From: Acidobacteriota bacterium
GTDB taxonomy: Bacteria; Acidobacteriota; Terriglobia; Terriglobales; Acidobacteriaceae
Length of the DNA stretch: 64,000 bases
Direction of reading: 5' to 3'
Assembly: GCA_021800255.1 (NCBI GenBank)
Contig: JAJYZC010000006.1
Location: forward strand, 43,624 to 107,623
Positions 13,469 through 16,136 of the stretch are shown piece by piece (positions within the stretch are counted from its first letter, which is position 1; every line of letters starts with the position of its first letter). The notes beneath the pieces are model-generated. The model saw only the letters and a list, made by a program, of their open reading frames with translations, was not told the DNA's origin and ran no database searches. The translations under genes were made by a program, and so were the position numbers.

Positions 13469-14332
13469 CTAGCCGGGCGGAAGCGCGGAAGGGGCGACTG
13501 CTACGGGGAGCGGCCGCGCCGCGAGCACGGGGTGTACGAGTTCGGCGGGCCAGATGTAAACCGCGAGGCGGCGGGAATAATGCAGAACCGGCGGCTGGTT
13601 CGGCAACTCAAGACCGGCGGCCGCGGCCAAGCCGTTGTGCTCGATCTCCGCCTCGGCTTCTTCGAGCGGCCAGGGAACGTAGTGTAGATAGGCGCGAACG
13701 GGGTCGCCCGCACGATTGGCGCTGAACAGGCAGGAGCGGTCGTTGAGGAAGGACTCGAGCGTGCCGGTGCGCATTTCGGCAAGCTTCTGGGTAGGCCCCA
13801 AGCCGCGGTAACGGGCTTTGAAGATCACCGGCCGGGCGGCGAAACGCCTCCGGCTGTAAAAGGAAAACTCGCGTTCCGTTCGTTGTTCAAAGCGCATCTC
13901 GGCCCAGTAGTAGGGTAGGTAGTAGAAGGAACGCGCTACGGCGATGGCCAGCAGGTTGCTTGCGTCGAAGGAAAAGCAATAGACGCCCGGCGTGCCCGTG
14001 TGTTGATCGCGGACATAGGTGCGCAGATTGAGATCAGGAAAGCCGCGCGCGCCGAGGATGGCAGGTATGCCGCGGAATTTGATGCGGTCAAGCCAGAATG
14101 GCACCACGCCGAGCCAAGCAGAGCCTTGAAAAGTGTCTACCTCCAGCCAGGGGGGCAAGAGCGCAGCAATCGAAGCTGGCGGAAGCGGCCAGTGAGCGAA
14201 GAGCAGGTCGTTCCATCGCTGGGTGATCGCCCAGCGCCCCGCCGGCAATGGCCGCGGTTTTTGCGATGTGCGTAACCGATACTCCCGCACGCGCTCCTCG
14301 CCCGTTTCCATTGATCTCCGCCCAGCCCACAC
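13469..14332 (-). CDS. DUF2071 / YqjF family protein
   Basis: WNDLLFAHWPLPPASIAALLPPWLEVDTFQGSAWLGVVPFWLDRIKFRG...FPDLNLRTYV...GVYCFSFDAS. Confidence 0.85.
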   Translation of the reverse strand: MWAGRRSMETGEERVREYRLRTSQKPRPLPAGRWAITQRWNDLLFAHWPLPPASIAALLPPWLEVDTFQGSAWLGVVPFWLDRIKFRGIPAILGARGFPDLNLRTYVRDQHTGTPGVYCFSFDASNLLAIAVARSFYYLPYYWAEMRFEQRTEREFSFYSRRRFAARPVIFKARYRGLGPTQKLAEMRTGTLESFLNDRSCLFSANRAGDPVRAYLHYVPWPLEEAEAEIEHNGLAAAAGLELPNQPPVLHYSRRLAVYIWPAELVHPVLAARPLPVAVAPSALPPG

Positions 14333-14522: not shown

Positions 14523-16136
14523 ATGTCCAGCGCATCTTTCGCCCGCCCCGCCGCCCGCAACCAGACTGAAGTATTCGCCGTCCACGGCGCCGACCCGGAG
14601 ATATTGGCCTTCGCTATGGCCAAGTACTCGCGTTCGGCGCTTTCCATGCGCGAGTCGCTGGCCGAGATCAGCGCCCAGCGCGCCGAACAGTTTCTGAACA
14701 CCTTTTACTTTCAATACGGCCACCGCTCCATCGCCGACCTGGCGCATATCGCCTTCGCGGTAGAGCGGCTCAGCCTGATGGCGGCCATCGTGCTGGTGGA
14801 CGAGCCGCGCTGGGATGGGCAGGAACGTTCGACGCGCTACCAGAACTTTCTCAAATCAGGGTGGTATCTGCCTGATTTTGAGGAGGATGCTGGTTCGGCC
14901 GCAGTGTATTGCCGGACCATCGAGAGCCTTTTCGCGGTTTACCAAAGCACAACCGCGGCCGTCCTCGACGTGCTGCGCAGCCGGGTGGTCCGGCCGGAGG
15001 CGTTGAAGCCGGAAAGCTACGAGCGCACCCTCAAGGCGCGAGCCTTCGATGTGGCCCGCTATTTGCTCCCGCTGGCCACCAACACCTCGCTCGGCCAGAT
15101 CGTAAGCGCGCGCACGCTGGAGGGCCAGGTTGCGCGCCTGCTCTCGCACCCCGCCGCCGAGGTGCGCGACCTGGGCGCCAAGCTGCGCGACGCCGCCACG
15201 GGACCCGCCTGGAACGTGAACGCGCAGTCCGCGCAAGCGTTCGTGGAAAAGCTGGGCGCGCTCAAGGACGATTCCCGGGCCGATCTGGCCGCCGAAGCGG
15301 CCGCGCTTTTCACGCGCGCGGTGCGCAGTGCGCCTACGCTCGTCAAATACACCCAGCCCAACCCCTACCAGATGGAAACCCGCGCCGCGCTGACGCAGGC
15401 GGCGCAGGAGTTCTTGCGGGAGTTGCCGCTGGCCGAGGCTCCGCGGGTCGATCTGGTGGAGCGGACCGAGAGCCTGGAGGTGGAGTTGGCCGCTACGCTG
15501 CTCTACTCGGCCAGTCATCATCCTTACCGGCAAATCCGCGACCTGGTGGCGGGCCTTCCAGGCTCCCGCATTTCTCAGATCATCCAGTTGGGGATACAGC
15601 GCCGCGGCACGCACGACGAGACGGTACGCGCCTTTCACGCCGGGGCCGCGCTGCGCTTCGACATTCTGATGGACATCGGCGGCTTCCGCGACATGCACCG
15701 GCACCGGCGCGTGACGCAGATCATCCAGGGCTTTACCGCAGAGCACGGCTACGAGACGCCGGGTTCGGGCGATCTGCCGGCAGGCCCACACGGCGATTTC
15801 GACATTCTAGCCGAGGCCGGCGTAGAGGGCGATTACCGCTCCGCCATCGAGTCCGCGCACCAGGCCAGCGCGCAGATCGCTGCGGGCCGGGCGCCCGAGG
15901 CCGCGCAGTCCGCCCTCTACCTGCTGCCGCTGGCCACGCGCATCCGGGCGCTCTTCAAGATGGACTTTGCCGAGGCGCAGTACATCATCGAACTGCGCTC
16001 GGCCCCGGCCGGCCACTTCAGCTACCGGCGCGTGGCCTGGGAGATGTTCTTAGCCCTCCAGCGCCAGCATCCGGAGCTGGCAAGGCATATCCGGGTGACC
16101 GACTTTACCAAACCAATCGACATGCTCCAGCGGTGA
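14523..16136 (+). CDS. ThyX-like FAD-dependent thymidylate synthase homolog, tandem two-domain form (537 aa)
   Basis: First half FQYGHRSIADLAH...QERSTRYQNF and RYLLPLATNTSLGQIVSARTLE; second half FRDMHRHRRVTQIIQGF and LYLLPLATRIRALFKMDFAEAQYIIELRSAPAGH. Confidence 0.82.
   Translation: MSSASFARPAARNQTEVFAVHGADPEILAFAMAKYSRSALSMRESLAEISAQRAEQFLNTFYFQYGHRSIADLAHIAFAVERLSLMAAIVLVDEPRWDGQERSTRYQNFLKSGWYLPDFEEDAGSAAVYCRTIESLFAVYQSTTAAVLDVLRSRVVRPEALKPESYERTLKARAFDVARYLLPLATNTSLGQIVSARTLEGQVARLLSHPAAEVRDLGAKLRDAATGPAWNVNAQSAQAFVEKLGALKDDSRADLAAEAAALFTRAVRSAPTLVKYTQPNPYQMETRAALTQAAQEFLRELPLAEAPRVDLVERTESLEVELAATLLYSASHHPYRQIRDLVAGLPGSRISQIIQLGIQRRGTHDETVRAFHAGAALRFDILMDIGGFRDMHRHRRVTQIIQGFTAEHGYETPGSGDLPAGPHGDFDILAEAGVEGDYRSAIESAHQASAQIAAGRAPEAAQSALYLLPLATRIRALFKMDFAEAQYIIELRSAPAGHFSYRRVAWEMFLALQRQHPELARHIRVTDFTKPIDMLQR

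What the first reader, a model, noticed from the sequence alone, without database searches (positions are those of the whole stretch)
14523..16136. Tandem ThyX-like protein with apparently complementary motif loss in its halves
Canonical ThyX carries RHRxxSxNExSxRY. The first half has PRWDGQERSTRYQNF (the xRY part kept, RHR lost). The second half has DMHRHRRVTQI (RHR kept, S..NE..S.RY lost). Both halves keep a YLLPLAT-type helix. This suggests intramolecular active sites assembled from both halves, or a repurposed flavoenzyme.
Basis: partly seen in the sequence, partly recalled or inferred. Interest (0 to 1): 0.62.

Follow-up and report, generated by a model that had tools for sequence, protein, structure and literature searches.

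The report
Double ThyX with split active site
This gene encodes two fused copies of the flavin-dependent enzyme that makes the DNA building block thymidylate; each copy has kept only half of the active-site residues, in the same pattern across about 150 Acidobacteriota genomes (none of which has the other, classical thymidylate synthase) and in some phages and other bacteria, so the working sites are most likely assembled from both copies.

Summary
In detail: ORF 14523-16136 (+, 537 aa) is two ThyX/Thy1 domains in tandem. The N-half keeps E-x-S-x-R-Y plus Arg179 and lost RHR; the C-half keeps RHR plus Arg492 and lost S-x-R-Y. All 139 tandem proteins examined (132 distinct; many Acidobacteriota lineages, Actinomycetota and Bacteroidota plasmids, several phages) show this split. 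Across 31 of them, most only 18-27% identical to the window protein, 8 of only 12 invariant residues are these catalytic positions. The split fits published ThyX geometry, where one subunit supplies RHR/Arg174 and others supply Ser88/Arg90/Tyr91 and the His53/Ser55 loop. Of 297 Acidobacteriota genomes, 151 carry the tandem form; none of these has full-length ThyA and one has DHFR. One closed genome lacks ThyA, DHFR and two thymidine-kinase families, so the protein should be its working thymidylate synthase. Best model: a tandem dimer forming a pseudo-tetramer with two complete sites (one C-half plus two N-halves each) and two dead ones. 'Repurposed flavoenzyme' is not supported; purely 'intramolecular' sites are unlikely. 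Chemistry and quaternary structure were not tested. I found no published description; databases name it FAD-dependent thymidylate synthase. New variant of a known kind.

The parts
14523..16136 (+). tandem ThyX-like gene, 537 aa (P0001)
14523..15428 (+). N-half (residues 1-302), Thy1 domain 1; supplies the dUMP-side residues
15429..16133 (+). C-half (residues 303-537), Thy1 domain 2; supplies the FAD/RHR-side residues; its model matches only ThyX-family structures among the top 50 PDB hits
14721..14729 (+). His67-Arg68-Ser69, equivalent of the T. maritima H53/T55 loop (role B)
   Evidence: H in 42 of 45, S/T in 45 of 45 N-halves; lost in C-halves
14799..14813 (+). degenerate RHR position of the N-half (DEPRW, residues 93-97; R78/H79/R80 replaced by D/E/P)
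   Evidence: D93, E94, R96, W97 invariant in 61 close homologues
14820..14840 (+). Gln100-Tyr106 (QERSTRY), equivalent of N85-Y91: E86, S88, R90, Y91 kept (role C)
15057..15059 (+). Arg179, equivalent of R147
   Evidence: N-half 45 of 45; absent from C-half; invariant in 31 diverse tandem proteins
15627..15629 (+). Arg369, C-half position equivalent to T55, turned into a conserved Arg (41 of 45)
   Evidence: invariant in 61 close homologues
15690..15707 (+). Asp390-Met-His-Arg393-His394-Arg395: Q75-equivalent plus RHR (role A)
15717..15740 (+). degenerate S-x-R-Y position of the C-half (about residues 399-406, QIIQGFTA)
15996..15998 (+). Arg492, equivalent of R174 (role A)
   Evidence: C-half 45 of 45; invariant in 31 diverse tandem proteins

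Best explanation
This is the cell's thymidylate synthase: a two-domain, flavin-dependent ThyX in which a duplicated and fused gene has divided the active site between its copies. Shown: two homologous Thy1 domains; RHR kept only in the C-half, with the Q75 and R174 equivalents invariably present there; Glu/Gln86, Ser88, Arg90, Tyr91, Arg147 and the His53/Ser55 loop kept in the N-half; the RHR / S-x-R-Y split present in every tandem protein examined; no full-length ThyA in the own genome or in any other Acidobacteriota genome classified as tandem. Inferred: two chains pair into a pseudo-tetramer that imitates the ThyX homotetramer. Each of two live sites takes RHR and Arg492 from one C-half, Ser103/Arg105/Tyr106/Arg179 from one N-half and His67/Ser69 from the other N-half, binds FAD, dUMP and CH2-THF, and methylates dUMP as canonical ThyX does, releasing THF so that no DHFR is needed. 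The other two sites are dead, having lost the corresponding groups of residues. So a live site takes residues from both halves and, because ThyX sites span three subunits, from two chains.
For: Both halves pass Pfam Thy1. Published geometry: subunit A gives RHR and R199 (=Tm R174), subunit C gives R87, S105, R107, Y108 (the last three = S88, R90, Y91), subunit B gives S71 and R190 (PMC6514825); PBCV-1 ThyX has Q75 and R182 from monomer A, S88 from monomer B (PMC3498832); H53 is on 'monomer-3' (PMC11940539). Partition in 45 diverse tandem proteins: RHR and R174 45/45 in the C-half; S88, R90, Y91, R147, E/Q86 and S/T55 45/45 and H53 42/45 in the N-half; S88 and R90 are replaced in C-halves and T55 is kept in 1 of 45. 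139 of 139 follow the motif split. Of 12 invariant residues in 31 tandem proteins, 8 are these. 151 of 297 genomes carry the tandem form, none with full-length ThyA, 1 with DHFR, against 67 of 70 ThyA genomes with DHFR. Closed genome G210 and also G163, G094 and G139 have tandem ThyX and Tmk but no ThyA, DHFR, TK or dNK match. Jumbo phage Tunturi_5 carries the tandem gene near dUTPase and dCMP deaminase; the Euzebya plasmid has it near dCTP deaminase. The top 50 PDB fold hits for the full model and for the C-half model are all ThyX-family entries.
Against: No FAD binding, activity or oligomeric state was measured. The R165 (Mtb R190) position, a role-B residue, does not follow the split: R in 24/45 N-halves and 18/45 C-halves. 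N-halves carry an aligned Arg at the R174 position in 26/45, usually behind a one-residue gap, and C-halves an aligned Tyr at the Y91 position in 18/45. Foldseek superpositions have high RMSD (about 13 A) and TM-scores of about 0.4-0.58, so the models do not fix the packing, and no coordinates were available to measure distances. If linked residues are counted as one event, the partition alone is about a 1-in-10 coincidence by my own estimate; the weight comes from its fixation across the family. The own genome has a thymidine kinase match, weaker than usual (E=6e-23), so absence of salvage is shown only for relatives. The genome counts are not corrected for shared ancestry.
Confidence: 0.8

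Rival explanations
1. The tandem protein is a thymidylate synthase, but the second domain has mainly a structural role and one half holds a complete site through unrecognised substitutes.
For: Each half is a recognisable Thy1 domain, and N-halves of some clades retain an Arg near the R174 position (26 of 45).
Against: RHR and R174 are invariant in C-halves of proteins mostly about 20-27% identical to the window protein, and RHR is absent from every N-half. A merely structural domain would not be expected to keep exactly the catalytic residues that the other half lacks.
Confidence: 0.08
2. It is a repurposed flavoenzyme (for example a nucleotide methylase of another pathway), and thymidylate comes from elsewhere.
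For: Precedents exist in the family: PolB, a UMP/dUMP methylase (4p5b), and C. glutamicum ThyX, described in its PDB title as not required for thymidylate biosynthesis. The window gene scores below the NCBIfam thyX equivalog cut-off (37.4 against 87.9 bits).
Against: None of 151 tandem genomes has full-length ThyA, and several nearly complete ones have no thymidine kinase match either. Other tandem clades pass the thyX cut-off (L125 146.6, L122 138.0, L135 91.6 bits).
Confidence: 0.05
3. Same division of residues, but the arrangement differs: for example one chain folds into a closed pseudo-dimer whose single site is built within the chain, or the pairing of halves differs from the pseudo-222 model.
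For: The AF2 monomer has pTM 0.84, but its packing could not be inspected, and R165 does not follow the split.
Against: Published ThyX sites are built from three subunits (PMC6514825, PMC11940539), and residues of all three roles are kept, which a two-domain site would not need. Active-site loops 54-74 and 95-103 have pLDDT below 50 in the single chain, which may mean that they order only against a partner chain (inference).
Confidence: 0.07

Closest known systems
Canonical ThyX / flavin-dependent thymidylate synthase (PF02511, TIGR02170; T. maritima TM0449, M. tuberculosis ThyX)
   Same: Homologous domains; nearly all mapped FAD- and dUMP-site residues are present once per tandem chain; takes the place of ThyA, and DHFR is almost always absent.
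   Different: Two fused copies instead of one; no half holds the contiguous RHR...S-x-R-Y motif; predicted two live and two dead sites instead of four identical ones.
Tandem proteins annotated as thymidylate synthase, or left as hypothetical, in Microcystis phage Ma-LMM01 (phrog_36506), Tunturiibacter phage Tunturi_5, Vibrio jumbo phages, and Euzebya, Miltoncostaea and Parabacteroides plasmids
   Same: Same two-domain layout and same division of motifs.
   Different: 21-47% identical to the window protein; as far as my searches show, not described as split-site enzymes.
ThyA (PF00303) with DHFR
   Same: Same product, dTMP.
   Different: Unrelated enzyme and chemistry; full-length form absent from all 151 tandem genomes.

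Membership tests
Thy1/ThyX superfamily (Pfam PF02511) | Score above the curated Pfam cut-off | tested here: met
   95.8 bits against 24.8; each half over the cut-off separately
Canonical ThyX (TIGR02170 equivalog) | Score above the NCBIfam equivalog cut-off | tested here: not met
   Window protein 37.4 against 87.9 bits; tandem relatives L125, L122 and L135 do pass
Canonical ThyX | Contiguous RHR...S-x-R-Y motif in one subunit | tested here: not met
   Motif divided between the halves in 139 of 139 tandem proteins
Canonical ThyX | Full set of FAD and dUMP ligands available in the oligomer | tested here: met
   R78, H79, R80, R174 and Q75-equivalent (Asp here) in the C-half; E86, S88, R90, Y91, R147, H53, T55 equivalents in the N-half
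Canonical ThyX | Replaces ThyA, with DHFR dispensable | tested here: met
   Own genome has neither; 0 of 151 tandem genomes with full-length ThyA, 1 with DHFR
Canonical ThyX | ThyX fold | tested here: inconclusive
   Top 50 PDB hits are all ThyX-family for the full model and for the C-half model, but TM-scores are about 0.4-0.58 and RMSD about 13 A
Canonical ThyX | Homotetramer with FAD-dependent dTMP synthesis | not testable with these tools
   Needs purified protein and complementation

The most novel reading that the evidence does not exclude
A widespread and so far undescribed class of thymidylate synthase in which an old ThyX duplication-fusion broke the symmetry of the homotetramer, leaving two live and two dead sites, with the dead sites remodelled (for example the conserved Arg369 where canonical ThyX has Thr/Ser55) into a structural plug or a regulatory pocket.
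Probability: 0.35. Interest if true: 0.65.

Novelty: new variant of a known kind. Interest (0 to 1): 0.5.

Why it matters
ThyX is an essential enzyme and an antibiotic target, treated in the papers found here only as a homotetramer with four identical sites. A natural form that separates the FAD-side and dUMP-side residues into two halves of one chain allows each contribution to be mutated alone, which a homotetramer does not allow, and gives a clear case of an essential enzyme becoming asymmetric after gene fusion. It is also the only full-length thymidylate synthase detected in roughly half of the Acidobacteriota genomes sampled.

Tried and rejected
First count of tandem genomes (two Pfam matches) included three that are not scored as tandem: G097 and G190 carry an intein-like insert inside a canonical ThyX and G045 has a fragment at a contig end and only a weak tandem-profile score; the count was redone with a full-length tandem profile. 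Leduc et al. 2004, the key paper on the three-monomer site, is not held, so subunit roles come from three later papers; the subunit of R147 was not found in them. Distance measurements on the AF2 model were impossible because coordinates are not provided. A profile search of viral contigs failed for lack of conserved stretches; single-protein searches gave 24 near-identical Ma-LMM01-type loci and one Parabacteroides-like locus, and none for the window protein or L125. An attempt to survey another phylum was not accepted. Sequence search of the PDB with the whole window protein found no ThyX.

Full report
What is there. The ORF at 14523-16136 (+) encodes 537 residues. The ATG at 14523 agrees with the starts of close relatives, many of which begin MSSES. 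Pfam Thy1 matches twice, and the genome-wide search finds two Thy1 matches in this frame and no other in a genome rated 100% complete.

It is a family trait. More distant tandem proteins come from other Acidobacteriota families, a Tunturiibacter jumbo phage, Microcystis phages, Vibrio jumbo phages, and plasmids of Euzebya, Miltoncostaea and Parabacteroides. All 139 tandem proteins tested (132 distinct) carry E/Q-x-S-x-R-Y early and RHR 213-334 residues later, with no contiguous canonical motif. In an alignment of 31 of them only 12 residues are invariant: A33, G66, S103, R105, Y106, Y140, R179, R393, H394, R395, Y466 and R492; eight are the catalytic positions named above. On a quick tree the C-halves form one side of a branch (support 88); N-halves and canonical ThyX each need two changes of label, so one old duplication is compatible but not proved.

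Why the split makes sense. In canonical ThyX each of four sites is built by three subunits (PMC11940539). One subunit gives RHR and R174; another gives S88, R90 and Y91; a third gives S/T55 and R165 (PMC6514825; PMC3498832). In the tandem family the first group is kept in C-halves and the second in N-halves; of the third group the S/T55 position and H53 are kept in N-halves (45/45 and 42/45), while R165 is variable in both. Grouping roles by half gives one consistent assignment: two C-halves and two N-halves in a pseudo-tetramer, two sites complete and two lacking all three groups. This assignment is inference. A conserved Arg (Arg369) replaces S/T55 in 41 of 45 C-halves, which suggests that the dead sites were remodelled rather than left to drift.

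It is most likely the working thymidylate synthase. With a full-length tandem profile, 151 of 297 Acidobacteriota genomes have the tandem form. None has full-length ThyA, and one (G033) has DHFR; of 70 genomes with ThyA, 67 have DHFR. Eight genomes with the tandem form have short or weak matches to the ThyA family, which are not full-length ThyA. The counts are not corrected for kinship, but the pattern spans many families. The closed genome G210 and the genomes G163, G094 and G139 have tandem ThyX and thymidylate kinase but no ThyA, DHFR, TK or dNK match. The window's own genome has a TK match weaker than usual. Gene neighbours in phage Tunturi_5 (dUTPase, dCMP deaminase) and in the Euzebya plasmid (dCTP deaminase) fit dTMP synthesis. 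A published table had already counted ThyX in 6 of 6 and ThyA in 0 of 6 Acidobacteria genomes (PMC5954106), in a paper that does not use the word tandem.

Structure. The AF2 model of the whole chain has pTM 0.84; loops 54-74 and 95-103, in or next to the N-half site residues, are below pLDDT 50. Its top 50 PDB matches are all ThyX-family entries, and the best viral match is the tandem Ma-LMM01 protein over 527 columns. The C-half alone, modelled with pTM 0.67, also matches ThyX (E=1.6e-6).

Novelty. Eight literature searches found no description of the tandem form or its split site; the library is limited to openly licensed papers, so an earlier report may exist elsewhere. Databases already name such proteins FAD-dependent thymidylate synthase. 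The protein is best filed as a two-domain, split-site variant of the ThyX superfamily, not as canonical ThyX.

Noticed in passing
L145 (G190:C34:102000-105500) and L133 (G097:C1:4376000-4378500): Canonical single ThyX interrupted by an intein-like insert with an HNH-like region, inside the stretch between the RHR-type motif and SEFNEISGRY; a kind already reported for a bacterial ThyX (Liu and Yang 2004, cited in PMC6514825).
   Followed up: partly
13469-14332 (-): A DUF2071 gene (Pfam E=9.8e-65) sits next to tandem thyX, divergently transcribed, and a homologue is present in 70 of 80 loci of close relatives (40 of the 43 longest), whereas the other neighbours are found in far fewer.
   Followed up: partly
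Acidobacteriota genomes G037, G085, G113, G122, G179, G180, G211, G250, G258, G274, G282, G296: Twelve genomes with no ThyX match and only a weak ThyA-family match (about 1e-6 to 1e-12); their source of thymidylate is not clear. Similar weak matches occur in eight tandem genomes.
   Followed up: no
C-half residue Arg369 (15627-15629) and its equivalents: The position of T55 in canonical ThyX has become a conserved Arg in 41 of 45 C-halves, possibly a filled or remodelled dead site.
   Followed up: partly
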